A stretch of DNA of 34,875 bases, from the NCBI GenBank assembly GCA_012033055.1, contig JAAUPR010000027.1:3902-38776 (forward strand). Direction: 5' to 3'. A program made the translations under genes and the position numbers. Shown one piece after another: positions 181 through 26,886 of this stretch (the first letter of the stretch is position 1; the number at the start of each line of letters is the position of its first letter). The notes under the pieces are model-generated. The model saw nothing but the letters and a program-made list of their open reading frames with translations. It made no database searches and was not told where the DNA came from. The stretch comes from Limnothrix sp. RL_2_0 (GTDB lineage Bacteria; Cyanobacteriota; Cyanobacteriia; Cyanobacteriales; MRBY01).

Positions 181-230
181 TCTGTTTGCTATTGTAAGCG
201 AGTCTGTTTGCTATTGTAAGCGAGTCTGTT
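181..230. repeat. 22-bp tandem repeat, two copies plus a 6-base partial
   Basis: The 22-mer beginning TCTGTTTGCTATTG is repeated exactly at 181-202 and 203-224, and its first six bases recur at 225-230. It lies between the stop of the YdcF-like gene and the start of the radical SAM gene, so it is in the leader of the latter. Function is unknown. Confidence 0.85.
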
Positions 231-256
231 TTGCTTCAGGGAATGGCGGCGATCGC

Positions 257-947: not shown

Positions 948-2135
948 CTAGAAAGAGAACTTCATTTTAAAGTCAGCCCCATGCACAGTGGTATTACGGG
1001 AGAATTGACCCCAATAACCAAGCTTCATCGAGACACCGTTGACAAATAACAACTCAACATTTGCTGCCGCATCAAAAATACTGCGATCGCCTTGGCTCGT
1101 CACTTCAAAAGATTCAACCTCAGGCGCACCAGCTAATTTTGCCGAAGTTGCAGGACTGGGGTCAGTGAGATAGTGGGTATAACCAAGGTAGACAGTCGGA
1201 CGAATCGTGAGATTGTTGTCTTTAAACTCGCCCCCAAATTCGATGGCTGGGTTCAAGGTGACATAGGCTTGGCTGCTCGCATCCACGAGTAAATTTAATG
1301 CGCCTGCCCCAGTTTCCTCAAAGCTTTGGGTCTTGACCCTCGTTGCACCAAAATCAAGCATTGGTCGAACATACCAACCGCCACCTGCATCAATGTCGTG
1401 GGAAACCCGCAGCGATGACCCAAAGAAAGAGGCTTCCTGTTCGCTAGTGACGCGATCGCCGAAGGGGAAAATATTAAATCGTTCTGCATCAAATTCACCA
1501 GAACCACCCACGATGCTTAAACCAATATCCGTAGAACCCCAAGATTTCTTAAGAGCAATACCGGCTTGGTTGGAAGAGCCATTCATCATCGCGGGCTGGA
1601 CGGAGGAGGCAGTCTCATAAACGCTAGTGCCAGCAGCTACAGCCAAGTACCATTGTTTACCGAGGTTAAGCTGTGTACCAGCCGAAACCGCCGAGGCGGA
1701 GGTCTCAAAATCAAAATATTCATAGGTGCGATCGCCATTATGTCCCAGAGCTGCCACATCAATCCAGAGACATTCCCCTTCCGTAATCACCCGGCGATCG
1801 CCGCTGGTTTTGCAGGTAAATAGATCTTCGGTTAACTGTCGCGATGTAAGTTGGAAATTAGTATGAATTGACCCATAAATTTCTGGGGATAGACTATCAA
1901 AAGGAGTGCCGAGATTGAGGGGTTCTTTAAGGGCAAAAATCGCTTCAATTAGTGGGGCGATCGCCTCAGAGCTACCCGCCAACTGCACCCGATTCAGATA
2001 ATCACCAAAAGCAGTTTGATTACGATTAAGAACGCCAAACCCAGTGAAACTCACATCAACATCAAGGAACGCAATCTTATCCGTAGAATCGATGAAATAT
2101 TCAACAATGACAGACTCAGGAACCACCAAGTTCAA
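948..2135 (-). CDS. Autotransporter segment 5: C-terminal outer-membrane beta-barrel
   Basis: A 395-residue frame open upstream to about 2346, adding a stem (IAGNYIQTETADFDLNLDF, RLNITQDASLEGNLNV). The last 260 residues show amphipathic alternating strands typical of an autotransporter barrel: SAGTQLNLGKQWYLAVAAG, GGGWYVRPMLDFGATRV, LTIRPTVYLGYTHYL and GVSMKLGYWGQFSRN. The chain ends ADFKMKFSF, the terminal aromatic residue being the usual BAM recognition signature. If expressed alone from an internal start it would lack a signal peptide and could not be exported, so it is functional only as the 3' end of the giant gene. Confidence 0.8.
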   Translation of the reverse strand: MNLVVPESVIVEYFIDSTDKIAFLDVDVSFTGFGVLNRNQTAFGDYLNRVQLAGSSEAIAPLIEAIFALKEPLNLGTPFDSLSPEIYGSIHTNFQLTSRQLTEDLFTCKTSGDRRVITEGECLWIDVAALGHNGDRTYEYFDFETSASAVSAGTQLNLGKQWYLAVAAGTSVYETASSVQPAMMNGSSNQAGIALKKSWGSTDIGLSIVGGSGEFDAERFNIFPFGDRVTSEQEASFFGSSLRVSHDIDAGGGWYVRPMLDFGATRVKTQSFEETGAGALNLLVDASSQAYVTLNPAIEFGGEFKDNNLTIRPTVYLGYTHYLTDPSPATSAKLAGAPEVESFEVTSQGDRSIFDAAANVELLFVNGVSMKLGYWGQFSRNTTVHGADFKMKFSF

Positions 2136-2260
2136 AGTTTCTTTAGTGATTGTGCCTTCCGTCGCCGCAAAAATCAGGTTGCGTTGACCCGGTTTAATAT
2201 TGGCGATGCCCCGAGTGAGGACATTTAAATTTCCTTCGAGGGAAGCATCTTGGGTAATGT

Positions 2261-4849
2261 TTAAGCGATCAAGGGAATCATCCGTAAAGTCGAGATTGAG
2301 ATCAAAATCAGCCGTCTCAGTTTGGATATAGTTTCCGGCGATCGCGTCGTATAGATCGATTGATCACCGGGAGAAATCAGACCCTTATTCATAAAAGTAC
2401 TCTGGTTGTCCTCACCAATCAACATCTGCTGACCAGTAAAGACAGAAGCACCAAGCTCACTGGTAAAGCTATTCACCCCACCACCAAGATTCATGTTGCC
2501 GTAGAAAACGCCCGTTGACTTATTGAGGACAGTTTCATTACCCTCTTCACCCACGACGGTATAACCATCTGGCGTCAGCAGCATCACACCGGGAATAGTC
2601 GTACTTGGGGTAATCTCCGATGCCGCAATGACAAAGCCCCCTTCATTGGTGAATCTATTTTCTGCACCACCAGAAATTCGAACCCCGGTGCCACTATCAT
2701 TCATGAAAATGGTTTTATCCTCGGTGAGGTTAACGGTGATATTGCCTTGGTTCTCTACACTTAGAGATTGGGCATAGATGCCGGTATTGCCCTCGCCGCT
2801 AGCAACGAGATTGCCATCAAGCTCAACATCAACAATGCCAGAATTGGCGATAGTCACTGTAGTGGGGTCAGTACTTGCTGCGGTATTTCCCCCAGCATTC
2901 ATAGCAAATATGTCATCGACTAAACCGCCACCACCACCGAGACTCTGGGCAAAGATACCAAAGGAGCGATCGCCAGTAACCGCCACATCTCCAGCTTGCG
3001 TGTAATCAATGTTGCCGCCACTGCCACTATTTGCGGCACTCTTATTAATCGTGATTTGTGACTCATCTAAATCAGTGAGGACAAAACCACCACCACCACC
3101 GATGGATTGGAGCACAACACCGTGGGATAGTTCACCAGAGGTAGAGACATTACCTGTCTTCGTGAAATTGATATCGCCGCCGTTACCAGTAGACCCATCT
3201 TCTGCACCAATATTGATCGTTGCGCTACTCAGTCCGGTGATCGTCGTCAAACCACCACCAGCACCAATAGCTTGAATCAGTTTGCCAGTGGAGCGATCGC
3301 CCATGGTTGTCGTATCACCCGTCTCAATGACGGTAATCGTGCTAGCACTATTGTTGTAGCTGGGGTCAGCTCCTAAAATCACATTAGCTGTCGCGCCGGA
3401 ACTTGCTACAGGGGTTATACCATCAGCAGCAACCGTATCAATATCTAGCTTGAATTGACCACCGCCACCACCAATAGATTGCACGGCAGAAGCCGTTGAG
3501 CCATTCCCCAAAGTTGTCGTGCTACCAGTTTGTGTTTGATTGATCGTGTTACCAGCAGAATTATTTGTATTAAGAGCACCAAGTCTCGCAGCAACATTGA
3601 AGTCTGTCGTCTCATTCAGCACAACCTGTTGATTAACTGTGCCACCGCCACCGCCAATGGATTGAGTTAGTGAACCGGAGGAATTGTCGCCAACAGTCAG
3701 CACATTAGCTCTTTGCTCAACCTCCATGGTGCTACCAACCGCATCGGTTGCCTGATTGGAGCCAATTTGAATTTCAGATTTAAGTTCTGCTTCTGTAAGG
3801 GTAGGAATGGCTTCTGTACCAAAATCACTAAAGTCGAGGAAGAGATTGGTTGTGCCACCGCCACCGTTAATGCCTTGGTTATTGGTCGCCTGACTATCTT
3901 TGCCAAGCATCACAATATCACCAGTTGCATTTACCGTTACCGTACCCGACTCACCGCTAGAGCCACCCCCCACTACTGTTTTTATGATGGCATCAGCGAC
4001 GGTCCACAGGGGACTAGAAAATGAATAAGCGGCATTACCACCACCACCACCGACGGACTGGGCAAAGATACCGTAGGCATCGTCGCCACGGGCAGTAATT
4101 GTGCCAGAATGATCGACTAAAACATCGCCACCATCGGCACCAGTACCACCAAAGCCACCCATGGCAAAGGTCAAAAGGGAACCGGCGATCGCCGAAGCAG
4201 GATTCGACGAAAAACCACTGGTAGAAAAAGCAGCCGCAAAACCACCATCGCCACCACCACCACCGACGCTTTGGGCATAGATACCATAGGCTTCATCACC
4301 ACTCACATCAATCGAACCAGTATTTGTCACAGTTACCTTGTCCGCGTTATTGCCGGAGCCGCCTTGTCCACCAATAGCAAAGGTTGCATTGATCGCCGAC
4401 ATACTAGAGGAAGGGTCAGGTAAGCCTAAATCGAGATTTAAACTTAGCCCCCCCGTACCACCGCCACCACCAACACTCTGAGCCAAAATGCCATGGGATG
4501 CATTTCCTTCTGTGAAAATTGAGCCGTTATTCGTAACATCAACCTCACCACTAACCCCGCCACTATTACCGTTACCACCGACAGTTAAGCCAAATTTGGT
4601 CTCCGGAGTACCAGAGCTTCTGATATTCACCAGGGTTCCGGCGATCGCCTGACCACCATTACCACCACCACCACCAAGACTTTGGGCAAAAATACCGTAG
4701 GAATTATCCTTTAAGGTGCGAATAGTTCCCGTTTCTTGGTTTAGAACCGTAACCTTGCCACCAGCTCCACCGACACCGCCAGTGCCACCGACCACAGCCG
4801 AAGCATTAAATCTTCCTTTACCACTAATGAGACTCACATCCGCCGCCAT
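2261..4849 (-). CDS. Autotransporter segment 4: C-terminal passenger repeats
   Basis: An 862-residue frame with about eleven further, more diverged repeat cores (GIFAQSLGGGGGNGG, GSLTQSIGGGGGTVN, GKLIQAIGAGGG). It changes near the end into a non-repetitive autotransporter-like stem: GGVNSFTSELGASVFTG, MLIGEDNQSTFMNKG and LISPGDQS. A LISPGD-type motif followed by INGNY-like residues commonly leads into the pertactin-like stem and barrel. The frame is open upstream to the C7 run at 4863-4869, where one base appears missing, so its first Met is not a true start. After about 2347 the residues (RSPETISKLRR) are out of frame; the barrel continues in the next segment. Confidence 0.7.
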   Translation of the reverse strand: MAADVSLISGKGRFNASAVVGGTGGVGGAGGKVTVLNQETGTIRTLKDNSYGIFAQSLGGGGGNGGQAIAGTLVNIRSSGTPETKFGLTVGGNGNSGGVSGEVDVTNNGSIFTEGNASHGILAQSVGGGGGTGGLSLNLDLGLPDPSSSMSAINATFAIGGQGGSGNNADKVTVTNTGSIDVSGDEAYGIYAQSVGGGGGDGGFAAAFSTSGFSSNPASAIAGSLLTFAMGGFGGTGADGGDVLVDHSGTITARGDDAYGIFAQSVGGGGGNAAYSFSSPLWTVADAIIKTVVGGGSSGESGTVTVNATGDIVMLGKDSQATNNQGINGGGGTTNLFLDFSDFGTEAIPTLTEAELKSEIQIGSNQATDAVGSTMEVEQRANVLTVGDNSSGSLTQSIGGGGGTVNQQVVLNETTDFNVAARLGALNTNNSAGNTINQTQTGSTTTLGNGSTASAVQSIGGGGGQFKLDIDTVAADGITPVASSGATANVILGADPSYNNSASTITVIETGDTTTMGDRSTGKLIQAIGAGGGLTTITGLSSATINIGAEDGSTGNGGDINFTKTGNVSTSGELSHGVVLQSIGGGGGFVLTDLDESQITINKSAANSGSGGNIDYTQAGDVAVTGDRSFGIFAQSLGGGGGLVDDIFAMNAGGNTAASTDPTTVTIANSGIVDVELDGNLVASGEGNTGIYAQSLSVENQGNITVNLTEDKTIFMNDSGTGVRISGGAENRFTNEGGFVIAASEITPSTTIPGVMLLTPDGYTVVGEEGNETVLNKSTGVFYGNMNLGGGVNSFTSELGASVFTGQQMLIGEDNQSTFMNKGLISPGDQSIYTTRSPETISKLRRLILISISTLRMIPLIA

Positions 4850-4934
4850 TGCGCCATTACCACCCCCCCACCGAGAGATTGCGCAAAAATACCGTGAGCC
4901 ACTTCACCATTAGTAGAGATGCCACCACTATTAG

Positions 4935-7900
4935 TCACCCCAACCTCGCCACCATACATGCCAGCACCACCATTACCACCGACAATGACATTGATATTCG
5001 AACCGCTGGAAGAATAACCCGTACGAGCAGCCCCCCCTCACCGCCACCACCACCAACAGACTGCGCCAAGATGCCAACCGCTTTATCTGCATTCGTTGCA
5101 ACTGTCGCTGAGCTAGTCACGATCACATCGCCGCCAAAGCCACCAGTACCACCAGTACCACCGACGCGAACATTGAAATTAAGATCATTACCGTCCGCAG
5201 TGGCATTCGAAATCCCATCCGTCAGATCACCAGTCGAGACCTCACCCAAATTTTCATCATAGCCACCAAGACCACCACCACCGCCGACGGATTGCGCAAA
5301 GATAGCATGGGCATCCTCTCCGAAAGTAGTGACCGACCCTTCCGCATCAACCGTGACATCTCCAGCAAAGCCGCCTGTTCCGCCTTCTAAGCCAACGCTA
5401 ACTTCCACCGAAGCACCGGGAGTCGCATCATCAGGGGGATCAATGGAAGCAGACACTGAAGTCGTCGTACTCGTGCCCCCACCGCCACCAACGGACTGGG
5501 CAATCAAGCCATATGCCCCCTTGCCCCGAGTCACAATAGCCCCCGTAGAATCAAGGGTGACATCGCCAGCTTCACCACCACTGCCGCCTCTTCTGCCAAT
5601 TTCGACAAGGATACCAATCGCACCGCCAGACTCCAATGTGCCATCCTGACCAGTGGCAACATCAAGCAGCACCGTTTTGATGTCTTTTTCAACGACAGAA
5701 TCGTCACTACTTTCTGTGAAAGGTGCATCCAGATTTAGGAAAGTTGCGTCCGAACCGTTGTCAGCATTACCACCGCCCCCACCAATGGATTGAGCCATGA
5801 TGCCAAAAGATAGATCTCCAATGGTTTCAATATCGCCAACATGGACGACATCAACTTGAGCGCTGTTGCCCCCATCTGCCGGCTGTCCCCCTAGGGAAAA
5901 ACCAATGGCTGGATTATAGTCAGAGGGGCTAGAACTGCCATCATCAAAGAAGCTGTCTAAGAAGCTGAAGTTGGCATGGGTGGAATTGTAATTGACGTTG
6001 GCATTACCACCACCACCACCAATCGATTGGGCGATAATACCGTGGCTATTTCTGCCTTGGGTCTTGATATTGCTGTAGTTATTGACTTCTACGGTAGATC
6101 CTGAAGTTGCAGTGCCGCCAGCGCCACCAATTGTGACTTGACCCACGAGACCGGGCACTTCTGTGAACACATAGCCCGCATTAAAGTTGATGCCAGCATC
6201 ACCGCCGCCGCCGCCAATACTAGAGGCTTCGATACCATAGGAACCAACTCCGTTTGTTGTGATATTGCCAGCAGAGGTGGAAGCATTACCACGATTAACA
6301 ACCACAGAGCCTGCATTACCAGCCCCACCACCGGAACCACCAACGGCAACTTGTATGGGAGAGTTGTTGATGGCAACGACCCCTGTGATATTGAATGCGC
6401 CTGTGCCACCGCCACCACCAACGGATTGAGCGAGCAGACCACCGGAGAAGTCACCCTCAGTAGTAATTGAACCATCTTGGTTAGCGGCGACATTGCCAGC
6501 GTTGCCACCGTCACCCCCGGAACCACCAACGCCAATCCCGACAGCGGCTCCATTGCCTTGCTTCCCTACTCCAGAGGCTGCACCTGTGATATTGAAACCA
6601 CCGTTACCGCCGCCGCCACCAATGGATTGCACGATAACGCCTTTAGCTTCGTTGCCTTGGGTCATAATTGCGCCTGTTGCTTCGGTTAAGGTGACGTTAC
6701 TGGCATTGCCACCGCCACCACCGGAACCACCAACGCCAACGCCCACAACACCACTACCTGTTTTTGCGCCGGAACCGACAATCGAAATATTAAAGCCGCC
6801 ATTACCGCCGCCGCCACCGAGGGACTGGGCCAAAATGCCACCGGAGCGATCGCCTGTTGTGGAGATTGGAGAGATTGCCCTAGCAACGACTGCTGCTGCG
6901 TCACCGCCACCGCCACCAGAGCCACCTAAACCAACATTGACAGCACCAGAACCTTTGCCAGCACCGGAACCATTAAGCGAGATATTAAAACCACCATTAC
7001 CGCCGCCGCCACCAAGGGATTGGGCAGTGAATCCTGTAGCATCTGCGCCGAGGGTTGTAATCTTGCCCGTTAGGCTGGCGTTGACTGTGCTTGCATCACC
7101 GCCATCACCACCGGAGCCGCCAACACCCACATTGACGCTGGCACTACCTGTGCCTGCTCCAGAGCCGGAAGTTGCAATGGTAAAGCCACCATTACCGCCA
7201 CCACCACCAAGGGATTGAGCCAGAAAACCACCGGAGCGATCGCCTGTTGTCGAAATTTCAGATGTCACAGTAGCCGTGACAGCCGCCGCATCACCACCGC
7301 CACCGCCAGAACCGCCAACCCCCACATTAATTGCGCCGGAACCTGTTCCTGCACCAGAACCAGATAGTGAAATATCAAAGCCACCATTACCACCACCACC
7401 ACCAAGAGATTGAGCCGTGAATCCGACCGCATCTATGCCACGGGTTGTAATATTTCCGGTCATGGTTGCAGCAACACCACCAGCATTGCCTCCGTTACCG
7501 CCGAAGCCACCAATGCCGACACTTACAGCGCCAGAACCTGTCCCCGCACCGGAACCAGATGCTGAAATATTAAAGCCACCATTACCACCGCCACCACCAA
7601 TGCTTTGGGCCATTAAGCCAGAGGAGCGATCGCCTTTAGTGGTGATATTCCCGACAACTTTTGCTGTAACGTCATCAGCAGCTCCGCCACCACCACCAGA
7701 GCCACCCACACCAACGGTTAATGTGCCGCTACCTACGCCTGCACCACTACCATTCACGTTGACGCTAAAGCCACCATTACCACCGCCACCACCAATACTT
7801 TGGGCCGCAAAAGCTGTGGCATCGGATCCTTCTGTAGAAATATTTCCTTCTGCCGTCGCGTTGACGGTACTTGCATCGATACCGGTTCCGCCTTTACCAC

Positions 7901-10900
7901 CGACACTAATGCCTAAGGCACCACTGCCCGTGCCAGCGCCACTACCAGAAACACCGACATTAAAGCCGCCATTACCACCACCACCACCGAGGGACTGGGC
8001 TAAGAAACCAGAGGAACCATCGCCGATTGTGGAAATATCTTGTTTTGCAGTTGCTGTTACGGCTCCAGCGGCTCCGCCAGAGGCTCCACTGCCACCGACA
8101 CCAACATTTAATGTGCCACTGCCTACGCCTGCTCCGCTTCCCGTCAAGGCCACGCTAAAACCACCGTTACCACCACCACCACCGATGGATTGCGCCACAA
8201 ATCCAGCTGCGTCTTTTCCTTCTGTGGTGATCGTGCCCTCTGCTGTGGCATCAACAATGCTTGCGGATCCGCCATCGCCGCCAGAACCACCCACGCCGAC
8301 ATTGACTGTGCCACTACCTGTACCCGCTCCGGAACCGGAAGCGGTCACGCTAAAGCCACCATTGCCGCCACCGCCGCCGAGACTTTGGGCCACAAAACCA
8401 GCTGAGCGATCGCCTAGTGTAGAGATATTTCCTTTGGCGATCGCTGTAACTGCATCTGCTGTGCCGCCATTACCACCGGATCCACCAACGCCAACATTAA
8501 CTGCACCACTGCCAACCCCAGCACCAGAACCAGTCACGCTTACGGTGAAACCACCGTTGCCACCACCACCACCAATACTTTGGGCAGTAAAGGCCGTAGC
8601 ATCAACACCTTCTGTCGAGATTGTTCCTTCCGCTGTGGCATCAACTATGCCTGCATTACCGCCAGTACCACCGGATCCACCGACACCAACAGCGACGGAG
8701 CCACTGCCTGTACCCGCTCCAGATCCATTGGCGGTGACACTAAAACCACCATTACCGCCGCCACCACCGAGACTTTGGGCAACGAAACCAGCCGAGCGAT
8801 CGCCTTTTGTCGAAATATTATTTGTTGCCTTGGCGATCACACTGCTTGCATCGCCTGCACCACCACCAGAGCCCCCAACCCCGACAGTTAAAGCACCACT
8901 ACCAACCCCTGCGCCACTCCCTGCAATGTTGACATTAAAGCCACCATTACCACCGCCACCACCAATACTTTGGGCAGCAAAAGCTGTTGAATCATCGCCT
9001 TCAGTACGAATCGTGCCATTGGCCGTGGCATCAACTGTACCGCCAGTACCACCACCACCGGAACCGCCCACACCAATGGATGCTGCACCACTACCAACCC
9101 CAGCACCAGAACCTGTAGCACTGACGACGAAGCCACCATTACCACCGCCACCACCAAAGGATTGAGCGAGGAAACCAAAGGAGTTATTACCCTGCGTAGA
9201 TAGATTCTGACTGGCTAAAGCCGTGACACCACCGCCATTGCCAGCACCACCACCGGTGCCACCAACCGCAATACTGAGGGAGCCACTACCAACACCTGCC
9301 CCCGACCCATTGGCATCCACACTAAAGCCACCATTACCGCCGCCACCACCAATACTTTGGGCAGCAAAAGCTGTCGATTCATCCCCTTCTGTACTAATTG
9401 TGCCGTTTGCTGTGGCATTAACGGTGCTTCCATTGCCGCCACCACCACCGGATCCACCAACACCAACACTAATGGCACCACTACCAACACCGGCTCCCGT
9501 GCCCGATGCCGTCACATTAAAGCCACCATTACCACCGCCACCACCGAGACTTTGGGCGAGTAAACCATAGGAATTCTTTTGCTTAGTGACAATATTGCCC
9601 GAAACCAAGGTTGTCACCGTGCCTGCATTGCCACCACCAGCGCCAGTACCGCCCACGCCCACATTCACTGTGCCGCTGCCTACCCCTGCGCCACTGCCAG
9701 TCAGTGCAACAGTAAAGCCACCGTTACCACCGCCGCCACCGAGACTTTGGGCAACGACTGCATGGGAATTTTCACCGTCGGTGTTGACATCATTCGCTAC
9801 GCTCAAATCAACATTTGCGCCAATCCCCGCTGTACCGCCAGAACCGCCAACGCCCACAGAAACACCGCCACTCCCAACGCCTGCGCCACTACCGGATGCA
9901 GTAATGCTAAAGCCGCCGTTACCACCACCACCGCCAACACTCTGGGCAAGGATGGTGATCGCCTCATCTCCAGAAGTCGTGATCGAAGTGTCCGTTAAAC
10001 TCGTCTTTTCTTTAACAGTTAAAATGACATCGCTCGCATCACCGCCACCGCCACCAGAGCCACCAACGCCAACCGATACAGCACCACTACCAACACCAGC
10101 ACCATCCCCTGTTGCCGAGATCGTAAAACCACCATTACCGCCACTGCCCCCAATCGACTGCGCCACAATACCCGAAGCCTTATCTCCAGAAGTATTCACC
10201 CCACCAGTGAAATCTGCCTCAACAACGCCACCAGCACCGCCACTAGAACCATTGCCACCGACAGCCACTCCGATAGAACCACTGCCGACACCAGCACCCG
10301 ATCCCGTCGCTGTGATACTAAAACCACCATTACCACCGCCACCACCGATCGATTGAGCCACAAATCCAGATGAGCGATCGCCAATAGTTGAAATGAAGCC
10401 ATCAAAAGTTGCATCAGCTTTCGCACCGTTGCCGCCAGTCCCACCATTCCCACCAAGACCAACAGAAATACTACCACTGCCGACACCAGCACCCGATCCC
10501 GTCGCCGTAATATTAAATCCACCATTACCACCGCCACCACCAATCGACTGGGCAACCACTGCATGGGAATTCTCGCCACCGGTCGTGACATCGTTCGCAA
10601 CGGTTAAATCAACAGTATTACCATCACCAGCCGAACCACCAGAACCACCAACACCAACGTTGACCGCACCACTACCGACACCTGCACCACTGCCAGTAGC
10701 ACTAACGACAAAGCCACCATTACCACCACCACCACCAACACTCTGGGCTAAGACACCTATCGAATCATTTCCAGATGTTGTGATACTCCCTGTCGATGTG
10801 GAAGCAATAACTACGCCAGAGGTGCCACCAGTCCCACCGGAACCGCCAACCCCGACATTCACTGTGCCACTACCCACACCTGCACCACTGCCGGAAAGGG

Positions 10901-11960
10901 CAATATTAAAGCCACCATTACCGCCACCACCACCGAGACTTTGGGCATTAAAACCAATGGAACTATTTCCAGAAGTAGAAATCACCCCTGTTGAAGCAGC
11001 ATTTACACTGCCGCCTACGCCACCGCCACCGCCGGAACCCCCCACGCCGATACTGATTGCACCACTACCAACACCTGCCCCAGAACCAGAAGCAACAAAA
11101 GTAAAGCCGCCGTTACCACCACCACCGCCCACAGACTGGACTAAAACACCGCCAGAATTAGCTGCGGTTGTTGTGACATTAGATTGCAAATCAGCTTTGA
11201 CTGTGCCACCAGTACCGCCGCTACCGCCAGAACCACCAACATTTACCCCAATTGCGCCGGAAGCGACACCTGCTCCAGATCCGCCAACACCGACTGAATA
11301 ACCACCGTTACCACCACCGCCACCGACGGATTGCACGAGAATACCGATGGCATCACTACCAGCAGTAGAAATAGAACCAGATCGGGTTGCTGCTGTGACT
11401 TGTCCGCCATTGCCACCGGAACCAGCGGAACCTCCAACGCCAACATTAATCGATGCAGAAGCAATGCCTGCGCCAGAACCTGAAACAGCTACGCTGCCGC
11501 CACCATTACCGCCACCGCCACCGACGGATTGGGCTAGAAAACCGGTCGAGTTATTACCTTGGGTTGTGATATCGCCTTCGATACCAACAGAGACTATGCC
11601 ACCAGTTCCACCAGCACCGCCAGCTCCCCCAACACCAACCGAAATGGCACTACTAAACGTCGCACCACCGCTACCTGTAATGGCAACAGCAACACCACCA
11701 TTCCCGCCACCACCGCCGACGGATTGGGCTAGAAAACCGGTCGAGCGATCGCCTGTTGTGAGAATACTGCCACTGAAGCCAGTACTTGTCAGCATATTGG
11801 AGGCATTAAAAGATCCTGCTGTCACCCGACCGCCACTACCACCAGCAGAGCCATCACCGCCAACTGCAATTCCTAAAGATGCCGAGGCTGGGCCACCAGA
11901 TGCCGCTAGGCTCACTGCATAACCACCATTACCACCACCGCCGCCGACGCTTTGGAGCAT
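4935..11960 (-). CDS. Autotransporter segment 3: core passenger of about 35 glycine-rich repeats
   Basis: A 2,341-residue uninterrupted frame with about 35 copies of a 65-68-residue module. Each copy has a turn (STxGDRSxG), the core AQS(V/I/L)GGGGGNGGF, a strand of alternating small and hydrophobic residues ending GSGAGVGSG or GSGAGTGSG, then VNVGVGGSGGxGG and a short VTAT strand. The first 28 copies are very regular; the last seven diverge and gain acidic inserts. No cysteine is evident, as usual for passengers. The family resembles large glycine-rich autotransporter adhesins of proteobacteria; the ligand is unknown. The last about 35 codons after the G7 tract at 5031-5037 are out of frame; the correct reading there is AARTGYSSSGSNINVIVGG. 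The plus strand over this region encodes only proline-rich shadow frames. Confidence 0.75.
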   Translation of the reverse strand: MLQSVGGGGGNGGYAVSLAASGGPASASLGIAVGGDGSAGGSGGRVTAGSFNASNMLTSTGFSGSILTTGDRSTGFLAQSVGGGGGNGGVAVAITGSGGATFSSAISVGVGGAGGAGGTGGIVSVGIEGDITTQGNNSTGFLAQSVGGGGGNGGGSVAVSGSGAGIASASINVGVGGSAGSGGNGGQVTAATRSGSISTAGSDAIGILVQSVGGGGGNGGYSVGVGGSGAGVASGAIGVNVGGSGGSGGTGGTVKADLQSNVTTTAANSGGVLVQSVGGGGGNGGFTFVASGSGAGVGSGAISIGVGGSGGGGGVGGSVNAASTGVISTSGNSSIGFNAQSLGGGGGNGGFNIALSGSGAGVGSGTVNVGVGGSGGTGGTSGVVIASTSTGSITTSGNDSIGVLAQSVGGGGGNGGFVVSATGSGAGVGSGAVNVGVGGSGGSAGDGNTVDLTVANDVTTGGENSHAVVAQSIGGGGGNGGFNITATGSGAGVGSGSISVGLGGNGGTGGNGAKADATFDGFISTIGDRSSGFVAQSIGGGGGNGGFSITATGSGAGVGSGSIGVAVGGNGSSGGAGGVVEADFTGGVNTSGDKASGIVAQSIGGSGGNGGFTISATGDGAGVGSGAVSVGVGGSGGGGGDASDVILTVKEKTSLTDTSITTSGDEAITILAQSVGGGGGNGGFSITASGSGAGVGSGGVSVGVGGSGGTAGIGANVDLSVANDVNTDGENSHAVVAQSLGGGGGNGGFTVALTGSGAGVGSGTVNVGVGGTGAGGGNAGTVTTLVSGNIVTKQKNSYGLLAQSLGGGGGNGGFNVTASGTGAGVGSGAISVGVGGSGGGGGNGSTVNATANGTISTEGDESTAFAAQSIGGGGGNGGFSVDANGSGAGVGSGSLSIAVGGTGGGAGNGGGVTALASQNLSTQGNNSFGFLAQSFGGGGGNGGFVVSATGSGAGVGSGAASIGVGGSGGGGTGGTVDATANGTIRTEGDDSTAFAAQSIGGGGGNGGFNVNIAGSGAGVGSGALTVGVGGSGGGAGDASSVIAKATNNISTKGDRSAGFVAQSLGGGGGNGGFSVTANGSGAGTGSGSVAVGVGGSGGTGGNAGIVDATAEGTISTEGVDATAFTAQSIGGGGGNGGFTVSVTGSGAGVGSGAVNVGVGGSGGNGGTADAVTAIAKGNISTLGDRSAGFVAQSLGGGGGNGGFSVTASGSGAGTGSGTVNVGVGGSGGDGGSASIVDATAEGTITTEGKDAAGFVAQSIGGGGGNGGFSVALTGSGAGVGSGTLNVGVGGSGASGGAAGAVTATAKQDISTIGDGSSGFLAQSLGGGGGNGGFNVGVSGSGAGTGSGALGISVGGKGGTGIDASTVNATAEGNISTEGSDATAFAAQSIGGGGGNGGFSVNVNGSGAGVGSGTLTVGVGGSGGGGGAADDVTAKVVGNITTKGDRSSGLMAQSIGGGGGNGGFNISASGSGAGTGSGAVSVGIGGFGGNGGNAGGVAATMTGNITTRGIDAVGFTAQSLGGGGGNGGFDISLSGSGAGTGSGAINVGVGGSGGGGGDAAAVTATVTSEISTTGDRSGGFLAQSLGGGGGNGGFTIATSGSGAGTGSASVNVGVGGSGGDGGDASTVNASLTGKITTLGADATGFTAQSLGGGGGNGGFNISLNGSGAGKGSGAVNVGLGGSGGGGGDAAAVVARAISPISTTGDRSGGILAQSLGGGGGNGGFNISIVGSGAKTGSGVVGVGVGGSGGGGGNASNVTLTEATGAIMTQGNEAKGVIVQSIGGGGGNGGFNITGAASGVGKQGNGAAVGIGVGGSGGDGGNAGNVAANQDGSITTEGDFSGGLLAQSVGGGGGTGAFNITGVVAINNSPIQVAVGGSGGGAGNAGSVVVNRGNASTSAGNITTNGVGSYGIEASSIGGGGGDAGINFNAGYVFTEVPGLVGQVTIGGAGGTATSGSTVEVNNYSNIKTQGRNSHGIIAQSIGGGGGNANVNYNSTHANFSFLDSFFDDGSSSPSDYNPAIGFSLGGQPADGGNSAQVDVVHVGDIETIGDLSFGIMAQSIGGGGGNADNGSDATFLNLDAPFTESSDDSVVEKDIKTVLLDVATGQDGTLESGGAIGILVEIGRRGGSGGEAGDVTLDSTGAIVTRGKGAYGLIAQSVGGGGGTSTTTSVSASIDPPDDATPGASVEVSVGLEGGTGGFAGDVTVDAEGSVTTFGEDAHAIFAQSVGGGGGLGGYDENLGEVSTGDLTDGISNATADGNDLNFNVRVGGTGGTGGFGGDVIVTSSATVATNADKAVGILAQSVGGGGGEGGLLVRVILPAVRISMSLSVVMVVLACMVARLG

Positions 11961-12200
11961 GATGCCAGTGGATTTCGTCCCCTGTCGTTTCCACTAGGCT
12001 TAAGCCCGTTCCTTGAGATAGATTAACTAGACCGCCGTTTCCACCCGTGCCACCACTACCACCAATAGATACTGAAACAGAACCACCTATACCTGCTGTT
12101 GCTTGTACTGAACCACCCCCATTACCGCCACCGCCACCAACCGACTGCGCAAATAGACCCGTTGAGCGATCGCCCGTTGTCCGAATCACAGAAGGAGTGC
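4935..12200. repeat. Tandem array of about 195-200-bp coding repeats, with a two-unit higher-order period
   Basis: The passenger coding region is a tandem array whose unit is about 195-200 bp, seen for example in the spacing of the QS-GGGGG core near 7014, 7211, 7408, 7604, 7798, 7993, 8187, 8387 and 8578. Between about 6800 and 9000 the units alternate: one type carries GDRSxGF plus QSLGG and GAGTGSG, the other a GxDAT/GDDST turn plus QSIGG and GAGVGSG. This implies expansion by a dimer of about 390-400 bp. Confidence 0.8.
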
Positions 12201-13665
12201 TTGCATCTTGACCCTGTAAGGTCACATTGACATCCCCTGCAATATTTCCATCACCAGCCGTTCCACCGATCGCCACACCAACAAACAAACTTGTCGACGA
12301 TGAGCTACCACCATTACCGCCACCACCACCAATCGACTGCGCCAAAATACCACGCGACTCAGTACCAGCCGTTTCAATCGTTCCACCATGGATAACAGTG
12401 ACATCATCCCCAGTGCCACCACCACTGCCGCTACCGCCAAGCGAGACTAAACCAGACGTTGACGCACCATTACCACCACCAATACTTTGGACAATGATGC
12501 CATGGGAAAAATCACCAGTAGTATCGATGCTGCCATAATTATTCGCGATCACAGCAGCGCCATCACCACCACCATCACCACTACCACCAATACTGACAAG
12601 ACCACCAGAAGAGCCACTGTCACCACCACCACCACCAATACTCTGAGCAACCATGCCACGAGCCGTATCACCATTGGTCGAAATACTACCGTAGTTTTCA
12701 AGGGTGACTGTATTCCCGTCCCCAGCAGAACCACCCGTTCCCCCTAGAGCAACTAGACCATCGGCACCAGCCGTACTCCCGCCGCTCCCGCCAATGGACT
12801 GCGCTAAAATACCATCCGAAAAATCGCCACCATTACCATCATCACCAGTACGAATTTCGCCATTGCTTAAATTTTGGACAAGGACTGTCCCCGCGTCACC
12901 ACCATTCGCTGCATCACCACCAATGGCAACAAGGGCACCATTCCCCCCAGCAGAACCACCACCGCCACCAAGACTTTGAGCAAAAATCCCCTTGGCATTA
13001 TCGCCACGGGTCACAATTAAACCGTTATTCCTCGCCGTGACATTACCACCATCACCGCCATTGTTCGCATTACCTTGAAGAGAAACGATCAGGTTGCCAG
13101 AAGTACCGGAACTGCCACCGGAACCACCGATACTCTGCACTAAAATGCCGTGGGCGTCATCTGCATTCGTGACGATACTTGCCCCTTGATTACTGGTGAC
13201 AGATACATTCCCACCATCGCCGGGGTTGCCACCACTACCACTACCGCCAACTATGCCAAATTGTGAGCCACCACTGCCTCCAGTATTACTTACACTCAGG
13301 CCATAAATGCCGACGGCTCCTGCACCTGTCGTACTAACATCACCATTGTTTGTAACATTGACGCTACCGCCATCGCTTGTATCTCCACCAGAACCACCGC
13401 TCGGCGCGGCAAAACCACTACCACCATCCCCCGCTGCACCACTTTGGCTGTACGCAAAGATGCCATGCTTATCCACACCAGTCGAGGCAGCCTGATTATT
13501 GTTTGTGAGGTTTACTGTGCCGCCAGAACCAGCATCTCCACCTGAACGACCCGAGAAAAAGGATAGATAGGAATCTCCTCCTTCACCGCCATCTCCACCA
13601 ATACTTGCTACTTCGATGGCAATCTGGTTGTTTGCACTAATATCAATATTATTTGTGGCACTCAC
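11929..13665 (-). CDS. Autotransporter segment 2: N-terminal passenger repeats
   Basis: A 578-residue frame, open upstream to about 13878 in the same frame, so the true segment begins at the frameshift near 13863 and not at its first Met. It carries about ten degenerate copies of the passenger module, e.g. GIFAQSLGGGGGSAG, GILAQSIGGSGGSTAG and GMVAQSIGGGGGDSG, separated by VTNNG/STTGD turns. The two or three N-terminal copies are the most diverged (VASIGGDGGEGG, GIFAYSQSGAAG). Beta-strand/turn periodicity suggests a beta-helical or fibrous passenger (inference). The last 10-15 codons (EIHWHHAPKRRRRWW) are out of frame after an extra base at 11973-11975; the correct continuation is the next segment. 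Confidence 0.7.
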   Translation of the reverse strand: MSATNNIDISANNQIAIEVASIGGDGGEGGDSYLSFFSGRSGGDAGSGGTVNLTNNNQAASTGVDKHGIFAYSQSGAAGDGGSGFAAPSGGSGGDTSDGGSVNVTNNGDVSTTGAGAVGIYGLSVSNTGGSGGSQFGIVGGSGSGGNPGDGGNVSVTSNQGASIVTNADDAHGILVQSIGGSGGSSGTSGNLIVSLQGNANNGGDGGNVTARNNGLIVTRGDNAKGIFAQSLGGGGGSAGGNGALVAIGGDAANGGDAGTVLVQNLSNGEIRTGDDGNGGDFSDGILAQSIGGSGGSTAGADGLVALGGTGGSAGDGNTVTLENYGSISTNGDTARGMVAQSIGGGGGDSGSSGGLVSIGGSGDGGGDGAAVIANNYGSIDTTGDFSHGIIVQSIGGGNGASTSGLVSLGGSGSGGGTGDDVTVIHGGTIETAGTESRGILAQSIGGGGGNGGSSSSTSLFVGVAIGGTAGDGNIAGDVNVTLQGQDASTPSVIRTTGDRSTGLFAQSVGGGGGNGGGSVQATAGIGGSVSVSIGGSGGTGGNGGLVNLSQGTGLSLVETTGDEIHWHHAPKRRRRWW

Positions 13666-13760
13666 CGTTGGCCCATCGGCTCCATCCTTACCGTCGGTCG
13701 GGGGAACAACTAAAGCACCATCGCGTCCGTTATCGCCGTCTTTCCCATATTCGATTCGTC

Positions 13761-14132
13761 TTACGCCATCAGCACCGGATTCGTTGATAGAAGGCTCTTG
13801 TGTACCGATCTCTCCTGTTGGAAACAGGGTCGTGGTGGTGAAGTCGTTAAAGGTTTGCTGATCACTAGAGTGGTTGTGCTAGTCGCTGGATTCGTGACTG
13901 ATTGTCCAACGGTTGATGATTGGGAAGGATCTGGGGGAGGGGTTTGGGCGATCGCCGCCTGAGGAGGAACAAAAAAGGAAAAAGCAATCGTTACCCATGC
14001 AGGGCTTCCGAGGGTGATCACACGTCCCAGCGTAAACAGAAATGCGATTAGATTGATAGAAGTGTTTTTGTTGAGAAAGCAATTGTTGTTCACTAATTTA
14101 GTTGAGATGCGTGGATATGAATCGGAAGTCAT
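13761..14132 (-). CDS. Autotransporter segment 1: signal peptide and start of passenger
   Basis: From the Met at 14132 the frame encodes a basic/asparagine-rich leader, then a hydrophobic stretch (NLIAFLFTL ... WVTIAFSFFVPP) ending QAAIAQTPPPDP, which resembles a long Sec signal peptide cut after an AIAQ-type site. The leader is about 60 residues, longer than a normal signal peptide, as is common in large autotransporters. Downstream of about 13863 this frame drifts into non-homologous residues and stops at 13761, whereas frame +1 carries the sensible continuation (TTTTLFPTGEIGTQEPS, then KDGDNGRDG and KDGADGP). The functional part of this frame is therefore about 13864-14132. Confidence 0.65.
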   Translation of the reverse strand: MTSDSYPRISTKLVNNNCFLNKNTSINLIAFLFTLGRVITLGSPAWVTIAFSFFVPPQAAIAQTPPPDPSQSSTVGQSVTNPATSTTTLVISKPLTTSPPRPCFQQERSVHKSLLSTNPVLMA

Positions 14133-14650
14133 ACATCTCAATCCTAATAGGAGAACCCAAGTCATTCGATGAAGATTCTGTAATGCTACGACTTCAGTTT
14201 TTTTTGAATGAATTAATTTGGAAACAAATCAATGCTATTCCCAGTGATCTCTGCATTAACTAAAAACAAGCATAAGCCTTTAAATTCTTTCATAGCAATG
14301 TTTGTAAGACCCTAGTCGTTTTAAATAAAAATCGAAAGAGTACGATAGCAGCCAAAGTCCTTTTTGTCATTGGACAAACATCACAAGTCTCCAAAAGCAA
14401 AGATGGTGTTCTTGAAGGCTTAAGTTTCGATACATCAACATTTATAAAATCAATACATTTATAGATCTTTCAAACAAGACCAGTCAAAACTATTCATATC
14501 AGTCTTATTTCATTTCAAAAAATCATCAAAATACATTTCAAAGGCCATATTTAATAATATTAAATTCGTGGTTTTAAACCATTGATTGATAATATCAAAA
14601 GAAACAGAAGGAAGGCGATCGCCCCCATGTTTTTTTATAAAACGACAATA
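14133..14650. other. AT-rich intergenic region between the giant autotransporter and the kefC-like gene
   Basis: About 500 bases without a gene on either strand. Both flanking genes are on the minus strand, so it should hold the kefC-like gene's 3' end and the autotransporter's promoter and leader. It is strongly AT-rich. The only clear structure is a run of three short inverted repeats at 14549-14598. I could not assign a promoter with confidence. Confidence 0.5.
14549..14598. repeat. Three consecutive short inverted repeats with one-base centres
   Basis: Perfect dyads: ATTTAATA-A-TATTAAAT at 14549-14565, TGGTTT-T-AAACCA at 14569-14581 and TTGATA-A-TATCAA at 14586-14598. Their centres (14557, 14575, 14592) are 17-18 bases apart. 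They lie 53 bases beyond the stop of the kefC-like gene and about 420 bases before the autotransporter start. They could be operator half-sites or weak terminator stems, but AT-rich DNA yields such dyads readily. Confidence 0.6.
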
Positions 14651-22477: not shown

Positions 22478-23437
22478 TTGTCACCGATTAATATCAAAAC
22501 CCGTGGTGCTGGCGATCGCTTCGTCGGGCGGGAGGATAAGCTGCGGGAACTAGCTGAAAGTCTAGATTCAGGTCAGGCTGTGGCAATCTCGGCTCTGACC
22601 GGGATGGGTGGCATCGGCAAGAGTGAGTTGGCGTTGCAATATGCACTGAAAAGTCACGAGGTGGGCAAATATCCGGGCGGAATCTGTTGGCTAGAAGTGC
22701 GGGCACAAAATCCAGGTCTGCAAATTGTGGAATATGGTCGTGCTCATCTGGGTTTGGCGGACAAAATACCTGATGGAGAACTGCAAACTCAGGTGGATTT
22801 TTGTTATCGCAATTGGCGGCAGGGTGAGGCACTGATTGTTTTCGATGATGTGGTGGACTATGACGAAATCAAGCCCTATCTCCCGCCGATAGAACCACGG
22901 TTTAGGGTTCTGCTAACCACTAGAAAAAAGCTGGGGTCGCCAGTCCAGAGGCTCGATCTGGATGTGCTATCTCTGCCTGATGCAATGGCGCTATTAACTA
23001 AATATGTGACGGATGGGCGAGTCACCCAAGAAAAAGAAACGGCAGAAAAGCTTTGTGAATGGTTGGGTTGTTTACCGTTGGCGATTGAGATTATGGGGCG
23101 GTATCTGGCAGAAGATGAGGATCTGAGCCTCGGGGAACTGCTGTCAGAGTTGCAGGAGGTGCGGCTAGAGGCGGACATTTTTCAGACGAAATACCCGGAG
23201 ATGACGGCAACGCGGGAGGTGGTGGCAGCGTTTGAGCTGAGTTGGCAGCGGTTATCGGAGACGGGGCAAGAGTTGGCGCGGTTATTGAGTTTATTTGCGG
23301 CGGCGGCCATCCCTTGGGAGCTAGTGGAAGATACAGAGATATTTGAGAAAAGGGCGTTACGGAATGCCCGAAAAGAATTGGTGAAGTTAAATCTATTGAA
23401 ACGTACTGCCGAAAAAGCTATGAGTTGCATCCTTTGA
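22478..23437 (+). CDS. NB-ARC (STAND) NTPase segment
   Basis: This frame gives a P-loop NTPase of the NB-ARC clade. DRFVGRED (13-20) opens the domain. GMGGIGKS (42-49) is Walker A, ALIVFDDV (118-125) is Walker B, LLTTRKK (145-151) is the sensor arginine region, and LGCLPLAIEIMG (196-207) is the GLPL motif. A helical linker (FELSWQRLSETGQEL) fits the ARC2/winged-helix part. The TTG at 22478 is the listed start, but the frame is open back to the TGA at 22439-22441, in phase with the preceding gene. The last 7-8 codons are out of frame after the A5 run at 23412-23416. Confidence 0.8.
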   Translation: MSPINIKTRGAGDRFVGREDKLRELAESLDSGQAVAISALTGMGGIGKSELALQYALKSHEVGKYPGGICWLEVRAQNPGLQIVEYGRAHLGLADKIPDGELQTQVDFCYRNWRQGEALIVFDDVVDYDEIKPYLPPIEPRFRVLLTTRKKLGSPVQRLDLDVLSLPDAMALLTKYVTDGRVTQEKETAEKLCEWLGCLPLAIEIMGRYLAEDEDLSLGELLSELQEVRLEADIFQTKYPEMTATREVVAAFELSWQRLSETGQELARLLSLFAAAAIPWELVEDTEIFEKRALRNARKELVKLNLLKRTAEKAMSCIL

Positions 23438-23994
23438 TTCGGGAATATTTTCAGCAGCAGGAACCGACGGACGACTATAAACAAGCGGTATGTAGAGCAT
23501 TGGTGCAGTTTGCTGAACAAATTCCGCAGGTTTCGACATTGGAGCAAATCGGAGCATGGGAGCCTTCCATTCCCCACCTAACCGAAGTTGCCAAAACACT
23601 CAATCCTTGGCTGAGAGAAGCAGATTTATATACCCCCTATGCCCGTTTAGGTCAGTTTTATTGGGGTCAGGGCTTATATGGTTTAGCTCAACCTTGGTAT
23701 GAATTGGGCAGAGAGGTTTGTGAAAAACAGTTAGGCACAGACCACCCCTCTGTTGCCACCAGTCTCAATAACCTTGCTGAGTTGTATCGTGCCCAAGGGA
23801 AATATGCAGAAGCGGAACCTCTCTACCGGCGATCGCTCTCTATTTACGAAAAACAGTTAGGGGCAGACCATCCCTCTGTTGCCACCAGTCTGCATAATTT
23901 AGGCACACTCTATTATCAACAGGGCAATTATCCAGAAGCCGAAAATTTGATTTCCCGCTGCTTTAAAGATTTTTCAGCAGTCTCTCGGCAATGA
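23425..23994 (+). CDS. TPR sensor segment of the NB-ARC gene
   Basis: The frame covers LHPLIREYFQQQ, the usual junction between NTPase and repeat regions, then helical pairs, and at least two canonical kinesin-light-chain-like TPR units. These are HPSVATSLNNLAELYRAQGK with YAEAEPLYRRSLSIYEKQLG, and HPSVATSLHNLGTLYYQQGN with YPEAEN. TPRs of this class bind peptides or form the ligand-sensing arch of STAND proteins. It continues the preceding NB-ARC frame after a missing base. The last about 15 codons (SRCFKDFSAVSRQ) are off frame; the correct tail ends at 24061. Fossil copies of this TPR DNA recur downstream at 24505, 25309, 26108 and 26920. Confidence 0.75.
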   Translation: MHPLIREYFQQQEPTDDYKQAVCRALVQFAEQIPQVSTLEQIGAWEPSIPHLTEVAKTLNPWLREADLYTPYARLGQFYWGQGLYGLAQPWYELGREVCEKQLGTDHPSVATSLNNLAELYRAQGKYAEAEPLYRRSLSIYEKQLGADHPSVATSLHNLGTLYYQQGNYPEAENLISRCFKDFSAVSRQ

Positions 23995-24639: not shown

Positions 24640-24948
24640 ATGCAAACTGTTCCAATTTCTCTTACACAACCGCAAATAGAGAATTTTTGCGAAAAATATT
24701 CCGTGGCGACCTTGGCATTATTTGGGTCAGTGCTGCGAGACGATTTTCATGCGGATAGCGATGTGGATATTCTCGTAAACTTTCTCCCTAATCAAACCCC
24801 CACTTTCTTTACCTTGAGTGATATGCAAGATGAACTCACCGAGATAGTGGGCAAAACAGTTGATCTCCGCACTCCAGAGGAATTAAGCCCTTATTTTCGA
24901 GAGCGAGTTCTAGCAGAAGCCATGGTGATCTATGACAGAAATCGATGA
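24640..24948 (+). CDS. mntA: MntA-like nucleotidyltransferase antitoxin
   Basis: A 102-residue minimal nucleotidyltransferase. LALFGSVLRDDFHADSDVDI contains the GS (29-30) and DxD (D41, D43) motifs of the polymerase-beta-like fold that bind the nucleotide and metals. In characterised pairs MntA neutralises the HepT toxin by adding AMP units to a tyrosine near the HepT active site. It overlaps the hepT start by 17 bases, so the two are coupled. The ATG at 24640 follows the TPR fossil's stop by nine bases. All key residues are present, so the module looks functional. Confidence 0.85.
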   Translation: MQTVPISLTQPQIENFCEKYSVATLALFGSVLRDDFHADSDVDILVNFLPNQTPTFFTLSDMQDELTEIVGKTVDLRTPEELSPYFRERVLAEAMVIYDRNR

Positions 24949-25279
24949 TCTAACCCGACTTCGACATATGCGTGATGCAGCCCAAGAAATTTTGATGTTT
25001 CTGGATAACCAAACAAAAGAAGATTTGTCGAATAACCGTATGTTGCAACTAGCCGTTATCAAAGATCTAGAAATTATTGGTGAAGCAGCAAATAAGGTTT
25101 CTGGCGAGATAAAACGGCAATATCCAGCAATTCCGTGGCGGCAAATGGTCGGGATGCGTAACCGTCTCGTCCATGTCTATTTCGGGATTAATGTTGGGGT
25201 TATCTGGCGCACGGTACAAGAAAATATTCCAGCTCTTCTTCGGGATCTAGAACAAGCTTTATCTGACTTTCGATCATGA
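24932..25279 (+). CDS. hepT: HepT-like HEPN toxin (DUF86)
   Basis: A 115-residue all-helical HEPN protein. RNRLVHVYF supplies the RNase motif R-X4-H (R76, H81) followed by X-Y (Y83), the tyrosine AMPylated by MntA in the RX4HXY class. LAVIKDLEIIGEAANKVS is the conserved central helix of the DUF86 family. The protein would cleave RNA (tRNA in studied examples) when released from control. It forms a two-gene operon with the upstream nucleotidyltransferase. Length and motifs are complete. Confidence 0.87.
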   Translation: MTEIDDLTRLRHMRDAAQEILMFLDNQTKEDLSNNRMLQLAVIKDLEIIGEAANKVSGEIKRQYPAIPWRQMVGMRNRLVHVYFGINVGVIWRTVQENIPALLRDLEQALSDFRS

Positions 25280-25580: not shown

Positions 25581-25859
25581 CTATCGATAAGACTTACTGC
25601 GATGTAAAACCCGATAAATAATAATTTCGTCTTCTTCAATCTCAAATAAAATCCGGTATTGTCCAACTCGTAAACGATATTCTGGCGTGAAGTTCGTCAA
25701 TTTTTTGACATCTCCCTGCAAGTCAGTCTGTAAGATTTCGATTTTTTCTAAGATATTACGAGCAAACTTTTGCGGGATTTTCTTCAGATCTTTGATTGCT
25801 TGAGGCCTGAACCTTGCTTCATACTGCACTAGATTATCAAACTTGAAATTTTGGGACAA
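25581..25859 (-). CDS. RelE/ParE-superfamily toxin
   Basis: A 92-residue protein with the RelE fold. FRPQAIKDLKKIPQKFARNI holds the N-terminal helices, YRLRVGQYRILFEIEED the central strands with conserved basic residues, and IIIYRVLHRSKSYR the C-terminal strand with catalytic/binding His and Arg. Members cleave mRNA on the ribosome (RelE) or poison gyrase (ParE); motifs here favour the RelE-like side but do not prove it. It sits 29 bases after a VapB-like antitoxin gene and 12 bases before its own small antitoxin gene, all on the minus strand. Confidence 0.85.
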   Translation of the reverse strand: MSQNFKFDNLVQYEARFRPQAIKDLKKIPQKFARNILEKIEILQTDLQGDVKKLTNFTPEYRLRVGQYRILFEIEEDEIIIYRVLHRSKSYR

Positions 25860-26280: not shown

Positions 26281-26886
26281 ATGCCGATGGTGACCACAAC
26301 CACGCAACAACCACAACAGTTGTCCCTCGAAGCATTTCTCCAACGACCAGAGACAAAACCTGCTACCGAATTCTTTCACGGCAGCCTGACCCAGAAGCCA
26401 ATGCCCACAGGAAAACATAGCCGTTTGCGGAGTCGTCTTACCCGTGAAATTGACCAGAGAACAGAAGCACCCGAAATTGCCCTAGCCTTAACAGAATTAC
26501 GTTGCACCTTTGGCGGACGATCTCTCGTACTCGATATTGCCGTCATCCGTTGGGAAAATCTGCCTTGGGATGAAGACGAGACAATCGGCGATCGCTTTGA
26601 GCAATGTCCAGACTGGGTGATTGAAATCCTCTCACCCCAACAGCCTCAATATCTGGTGATGGAAAAAATTCTTTTCTGTCTACAGCACGGTACGGCAATG
26701 GGTTGGCTGATTGATCCCTACGTCGAAAGCATTACCGTTTTCAGAAAAGACAAAACTCCCACATTGCATTTGAGTCAGCCACTTCCAGAAACACAGGATA
26801 CACCTCTGCCCATGCTTGATGACTTAGGTGACTGGAAACTGTATGCAAAAGATTTATTTGGCTGGCTGAAACGTCCAAGTCATTAA
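26281..26886 (+). CDS. Uma2 family endonuclease-like protein (DUF820)
   Basis: A 201-residue protein of the Uma2/DUF820 family, abundant in cyanobacteria. It shows the opening LSLEAFLQRPETKPATEFFHG, the KPMPTGKHSRLRSRL block, the core LVLDIAVIRWENLP, PDWVIEILSP with the conserved acid, and KILFCLQHGTAMGWLIDP. These are the PD-(D/E)xK-like elements (D, E and K) of the fold. Members are thought to be nucleases, often linked to mobile elements, but most are uncharacterised. It stands alone on the plus strand between two TPR fossils. Length is normal and the frame intact. Confidence 0.82.
   Translation: MPMVTTTTQQPQQLSLEAFLQRPETKPATEFFHGSLTQKPMPTGKHSRLRSRLTREIDQRTEAPEIALALTELRCTFGGRSLVLDIAVIRWENLPWDEDETIGDRFEQCPDWVIEILSPQQPQYLVMEKILFCLQHGTAMGWLIDPYVESITVFRKDKTPTLHLSQPLPETQDTPLPMLDDLGDWKLYAKDLFGWLKRPSH

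What the first reader, a model, noticed from the sequence alone, without database searches (positions are those of the whole stretch)
948..14132. Very large cyanobacterial autotransporter-like surface protein with more than 50 repeats
Joining the five segments gives about 4,400 residues with a signal peptide, over 50 AQS(V/I/L)GGGGG cores and a classical barrel. Type V autotransporters of this size are uncommon, and few are described in cyanobacteria. The passenger could mediate cell adhesion, aggregation or phage exclusion (inference).
Basis: partly seen in the sequence, partly recalled or inferred. Interest (0 to 1): 0.6.

Follow-up and report, generated by a model that had tools for sequence, protein, structure and literature searches.

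The report
Giant glycine-repeat autotransporter, frameshifted in window
This cyanobacterium carries a broken copy of a very long, glycine-rich cell-surface protein anchored by a standard outer-membrane barrel; intact single-gene copies exist in two sister species and the same repeat is common in Proteobacteria, so it is an interesting but not unprecedented surface protein, probably acquired by gene transfer.

Summary
The minus strand, 948-14165, spans about 4,400 codons: signal-peptide-like N-terminus, Gly-rich repeat passenger, and a C-terminal barrel matching PF03797 (E 2.9e-27). It has 37 exact AQS(V/I/L)GGGGG cores (48 relaxed), not over 50. Two sister species carry the protein as one open frame (4,170 and 5,150 residues), so the 'separate genes' refuter fails. 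The window copy is broken by about five frameshifts plus an N-terminal deletion; two breaks sit on G7 tracts. Pseudogene, slippage and sequencing error cannot be told apart. The family is not new: the same repeat, often with the same 65-residue period, occurs in at least 119 stretches, mostly proteobacterial, and 45/45 readable C-termini are PF03797. Barrel phylogeny puts the window trio among them and rejects one clade of the sampled cyanobacterial barrels (AU p 7e-5), suggesting horizontal acquisition. Autotransporters are not rare in cyanobacteria (67/386 genomes; open frames up to 9,433 residues). Most interesting: two moderate-confidence models suggest a beta-helix flanked by a glycine-rich polyproline-II bundle, in line with a (GGX)3 pattern. 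Adhesion is the likeliest role; phage exclusion has no support.

The parts
13761..14165 (-). N-terminal segment: start, hydrophobic signal-peptide-like stretch (...VPPQAAIAQTPPPDPS) and first linker; frame lost near 13865
   Evidence: a similar junction (AIAQT/AITQS..PDPS) in the N-termini of G004 and G005; no signal-peptide predictor was available
11929..13665 (-). N-terminal passenger segment (578-aa ORF; homology in this frame spans 11980-13869) with diverged, mostly shorter AQS repeats
   Evidence: 77% identity to G005 residues 182-814
4935..11960 (-). Main repeat block, 2,341-aa ORF, 34 cores, mostly 65-residue period
4863..5037 (-). Short third-frame piece (about 52 aa, one more repeat) bounded by two G7 tracts, each one base short relative to G005
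2261..4849 (-). C-terminal passenger segment, 862-aa ORF, diverged repeats (homology in this frame 2345-4867)
948..2342 (-). C-terminal segment: end of passenger plus barrel; homology in this frame begins at 2342 although the listed TTG-start ORF begins at 2135
1014..1748 (-). Autotransporter beta-barrel (PF03797); the protein ends ...MKFSF
   Evidence: coordinates follow from residues 130-374 of the 948-2135 ORF

Best explanation
It is a disrupted copy of a giant type Va autotransporter, most likely an adhesin or matrix fibre. Shown: one gene in relatives; about 50 Gly-rich repeats followed by a PF03797 barrel; Omp85 and TamB proteins encoded in the genome. Inferred: Sec exports the protein, BAM/TAM-type machinery inserts the barrel, and the repeats fold outside the cell as a long beta-helix fibre through which cells adhere or aggregate. 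Inferred: an ancestor of this genus acquired the gene horizontally from the pool of AQS-repeat autotransporters found mainly in Proteobacteria. In this assembly the frame is broken in about five places, so the copy is a recent pseudogene, or shows tract slippage or sequencing error.
For: Barrel profiles; intact single-frame homologues in G005 and G004; at least 119 AQS-repeat stretches, mostly Proteobacteria, with the repeats in one long ORF in nearly every locus and 45/45 readable C-termini matching PF03797; barrel tree and AU test p 6.7e-5; repeat pattern in only 3 genera of the 386 sampled phylum genomes; Omp85 and TamB in the genome; purifying selection, dN/dS 0.07-0.30 against G005, with no stop codon inside the segments compared; repeat models resemble autotransporter beta-helices Vag8 (Z 9.1, 9.0) and pertactin (Z 8.8).
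Against: No expression or functional data; the adhesin role rests on fold class and architecture only. No dedicated signal-peptide prediction. The barrel tree has long branches and four AQS barrels lie outside the main AQS clade. Repeat models have mean pLDDT of only 68-70, with the other models of each run lower.
Confidence: 0.72

Rival explanations
1. The gene is intact in the living strain; the frameshifts are sequencing or assembly errors in a G-rich repeat array.
For: Two of the five breaks sit on G7 tracts, and the gene has only three runs of 7 or more; no nonsense changes against five indels; no faster change of the window copy than of G005 with G004 as third sequence.
Against: Splits elsewhere in this genome are rare: one among 44 matched genes; J1 includes a loss of about 75 residues relative to G005, and J2 and J4 are not long homopolymers.
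Confidence: 0.4
2. The gene is a genuine pseudogene, recently inactivated in this strain.
For: Five indels in about 4,070 codons against roughly 0.3 expected from the sampled background (Poisson P about 1.5e-5); an N-terminal deletion relative to G005; the gene is absent from three of the six genomes of the genus, so it is dispensable.
Against: The background rate rests on a single event in a small sample; no nonsense mutations; low dN/dS.
Confidence: 0.5
3. The pieces are separate genes or a multi-gene array.
For: They appear as five ORFs in the window.
Against: One open frame in G005 and in G004, aligned across all pieces.
Confidence: 0.02
4. The passenger acts in phage exclusion, or as a secreted enzyme or toxin, rather than as an adhesin or matrix fibre.
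For: Only the expected surface location; the window also holds defence-like genes.
Against: No enzymatic, toxin or other domain in any passenger segment by Pfam or NCBIfam.
Confidence: 0.05

Closest known systems
AQSxGGGGGNGG-repeat autotransporters of Proteobacteria (e.g. loci in Ruegeria L077, Martelella L089, Desulfuromonadaceae L081)
   Same: Same repeat core, often the same 65-residue period, very long ORFs; PF03797 barrel at the C-terminus wherever it could be read
   Different: Cyanobacterial host; window copy frameshifted; barrel forms its own clade with G005 and G004, nearest to a Planctomycetota MAG
Type Va autotransporter beta-helix passengers (Bordetella Vag8 7akv, pertactin 2iou)
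   Same: Type Va barrel; models resemble their parallel beta-helix (VIA Z about 9)
   Different: About 50 Gly-rich repeats with (GGX)3 stretches; no sequence relative in the PDB
Glycine-rich polyproline-II bundles (springtail antifreeze protein 7jjv, snow flea 2pne/3bog; Obg and T-even phage adhesin as reviewed in PMC8409303)
   Same: Gly at a fixed phase of three; two models align to 125 of 126 residues of 7jjv at 1.7 A, Z 14.2 and 13.2
   Different: Here predicted as a layer along a beta-helix in a bacterial repeat protein; Foldseek itself gives only E 0.01 and 0.14
PF03797 autotransporters of other cyanobacteria (family f41 above all)
   Same: Same phylum and barrel family; by coordinates and frame, AQS cores lie inside the giant open frames of G379, G402 and G408
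   Different: Their sampled barrels fall outside the window's clade and they hold few exact cores (2-4 against 30)

Membership tests
Type Va (classical) autotransporter | C-terminal PF03797 beta-barrel ending in an aromatic residue | tested here: met
   E 2.9e-27; ends ...MKFSF
Type Va (classical) autotransporter | Passenger and barrel in one polypeptide | tested here: met
   Met in G005 and G004; in the window copy the frame is broken
Type Va (classical) autotransporter | Sec signal peptide | tested here: inconclusive
   Hydrophobic stretch followed by an AxA-like site in window, G005 and G004, by inspection only
Type Va (classical) autotransporter | Parallel beta-helix passenger | tested here: inconclusive
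   Models of mean pLDDT 68-70 align to Vag8 at Z about 9
Type Va (classical) autotransporter | Passenger displayed at the cell surface | not testable with these tools
   Needs experiment
AQSxGGGGGNGG-repeat autotransporters (grouping made here) | AQSxGGGGGNGG repeats upstream of a PF03797 barrel in one ORF | tested here: met
AQSxGGGGGNGG-repeat autotransporters (grouping made here) | Barrel groups with barrels of that set | tested here: met
   In a 44-row set (100/100) with 41 AQS barrels; one clade of all sampled cyanobacterial barrels rejected, AU p 6.7e-5; four AQS barrels lie on the other side
Glycine-rich polyproline-II bundle | Bundle of PPII helices with Gly at a fixed phase of three | tested here: inconclusive
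   GGX phase in 21 window units and 162 units of other loci; two models match 7jjv; low Foldseek significance; no experiment
Anti-phage defence system | Demonstrated phage-resistance phenotype | not testable with these tools
   No indication found; passenger segments have no Pfam or NCBIfam domain; PADLOC not run

The most novel reading that the evidence does not exclude
The widespread AQS-repeat autotransporters have an undescribed composite fold: a parallel beta-helix in which every 65-residue repeat adds two (GGX)3 polyproline-II helices, so that a glycine-rich PPII layer runs along the whole fibre as a flat, repetitive binding surface.
Probability: 0.35. Interest if true: 0.65.

Novelty: new member of a known kind. 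Interest (0 to 1): 0.42.

Why it matters
It ties giant cyanobacterial surface proteins to a large repeat family of Proteobacteria that has no passenger model in Pfam or NCBIfam, and suggests gene transfer between phyla. If the beta-helix plus polyproline-II architecture is right, it would be a fibre design shared by many environmental bacteria and open to direct structural and adhesion tests.

Tried and rejected
tblastn of the repeat against plasmids gave no match, but BLAST's low-complexity filter may have masked the Gly-rich query, so this is not evidence of absence. The search for related loci with the barrel in genome contigs found nothing. PDB sequence searches with barrel and repeat gave no relative. 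Paper searches for the repeat motif gave only unrelated text; searches for cyanobacterial autotransporters of this type and for autotransporters with polyproline-II bundles found none in the held library. The curli CsgA match (Z 9.4) was set aside because of its 8.3 A rmsd. The separate-genes reading was rejected. Promoter- and terminator-like sites were no more frequent than in shuffles.

Full report
Observation. On the minus strand the window holds ORFs 13761-14165, 11929-13665, 4935-11960, 2261-4849 and 948-2135, together a span of about 4,400 codons. The last carries PF03797 (E 2.9e-27) and TIGR01414; it is the only PF03797 match in this 4.13 Mb, 97% complete genome. The genome is cyanobacterial: eight phycobilisome-domain matches and 60 copies of GCGATCGC (the HIP1 octamer, own knowledge) in the window against about 0.4 expected from base composition. 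Repeat cores: 37 exact AQS[VIL]GGGGG and 48 relaxed, below the 'over 50' claimed; the commonest spacing is 65 residues. The passenger pieces have no Pfam or NCBIfam match.

One gene, broken here. Three of the six genomes held for the genus carry the protein. In G005 (82% identity over the last 395 residues) and G004 (71%) it is one open frame of 4,170 and 5,150 residues stop to stop. Their proteins align to the window pieces in order but across frame changes. The breaks are: J1 near 13865, with loss of about 75 residues relative to G005; J2 near 11985, one base extra; J3a at the G7 tract 5031-5037 and J3b at the G7 tract 4863-4869, one base fewer each; and J4 near 2342. Two of the three G7 tracts in the gene are break sites.

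Pseudogene or error? Sampled contigs of the same genome (about 260 kb outside the window) compared with about 1.2 Mb of G005 gave one split outside this gene among 44 matched genes, so roughly 0.3 breaks would be expected in this gene against five seen (Poisson P about 1.5e-5). That background rests on one event, and some window matches may be shadow ORFs, so the figure is rough. Against long decay: no nonsense codons in the segments compared, dN/dS 0.07 for the C-terminal segment and 0.10-0.30 for two passenger segments (synonymous sites near saturation), and no faster change than in G005. I leave pseudogene, tract slippage and sequencing error open.

Relatives. In nearly all loci the repeats sit in one long ORF, often with periods of 61-66 residues. 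Of 45 ORFs whose C-terminus could be read, all 45 match PF03797. In 386 genomes of the phylum PF03797 occurs in 67, with open frames up to 9,433 residues, so large autotransporters are not rare there; the exact repeat pattern occurs in only 7 genomes of 3 genera. By coordinates and reading frame, the cores of G379, G402 and G408 lie inside their giant PF03797 open frames (arithmetic, not read base by base), so the repeat is present in a second cyanobacterial lineage.

Origin. A barrel tree of 65 rows places the window trio in a 100/100 set with 41 AQS-repeat barrels from other phyla, next to a Planctomycetota MAG, and apart from 17 other cyanobacterial barrels. Holding all cyanobacterial barrels together is rejected, AU p 6.7e-5. 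Long branches call for caution, and four AQS barrels lie on the other side. Horizontal acquisition is the best inference, its donor unknown.

Fold. Two AlphaFold2 models of five repeats, one from window rows only and one with rows from other phyla added, have mean pLDDT 69.9 and 68.3 and a similar strand order. They share rows, so they are not fully independent. VIA aligns both to autotransporter beta-helices (Vag8 Z 9.1 and 9.0; pertactin 8.8 for the first) and, more strongly, to the nine-helix polyproline-II springtail antifreeze protein 7jjv (Z 14.2 and 13.2, 1.7 A over 125 of 126 residues). Foldseek alone is not significant (E 0.01 and 0.14), and repeats can score high by arrangement alone. 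The sequence agrees with the idea: glycine is nearly fixed at unit positions 5, 6, 8, 9, 11, 12 and 34, 35, 37, 38, 40, 41 (80-100% in 21 window units and in 162 units from other loci), while the third position of most triplets is not glycine. Gly-rich PPII bundles are known in a carboxylase, Obg, T-even phage adhesins and snow flea antifreeze proteins (PMC8409303); no autotransporter example turned up in the papers searched.

Mechanism. From established knowledge of type V secretion, the protein would be exported by Sec and its barrel inserted with BAM/TAM-type help; this genome encodes Omp85 and TamB proteins. Shown: architecture, family, one gene in relatives, disruption here. Inferred: surface display, fibre, adhesion or aggregation. 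Phage exclusion has no support.

Verdict. A real giant type Va autotransporter gene, disrupted in this assembly; a new member of a widespread repeat family without a passenger model in the libraries searched; with a structurally interesting and testable prediction.

Noticed in passing
window 22478-23994 (+): NB-ARC ORF (22478-23437) followed by an overlapping TPR ORF in another frame (23425-23994): possibly a second frameshifted gene, of the STAND type.
   Followed up: partly
window 24640-25279 (+): Adjacent nucleotidyltransferase (Polbeta) and HepT-like ribonuclease: a MntA/HepT-type toxin-antitoxin pair.
   Followed up: no
window 25581-25859 (-): ParE-family toxin ORF.
   Followed up: no
window 26281-26886 (+): Uma2-family putative endonuclease.
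   Followed up: no
window 32857-34875 (-): Helicase / type I restriction R-subunit-like ORF running off the window end.
   Followed up: no
window 181-231: Perfect 22-bp tandem repeat, 2.3 copies, downstream of the autotransporter gene.
   Followed up: no
window 7417-9165 and 10393-11301 (+): Long proline-rich ORFs opposite the glycine repeats; they mirror the GGN codons and are not evidence of genes.
   Followed up: no
G402:C1 and G408:C1 (other cyanobacteria, family f41): Open frames of 9,151 and 9,433 residues with split PF03797 matches at the C-terminal end and AQS cores near the other end, in frame by coordinates: far larger than the window's gene.
   Followed up: partly
window 4448-4454 (-): The third G7 tract of the gene, not shifted in this assembly; with the two shifted ones a candidate slippage site.
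   Followed up: no
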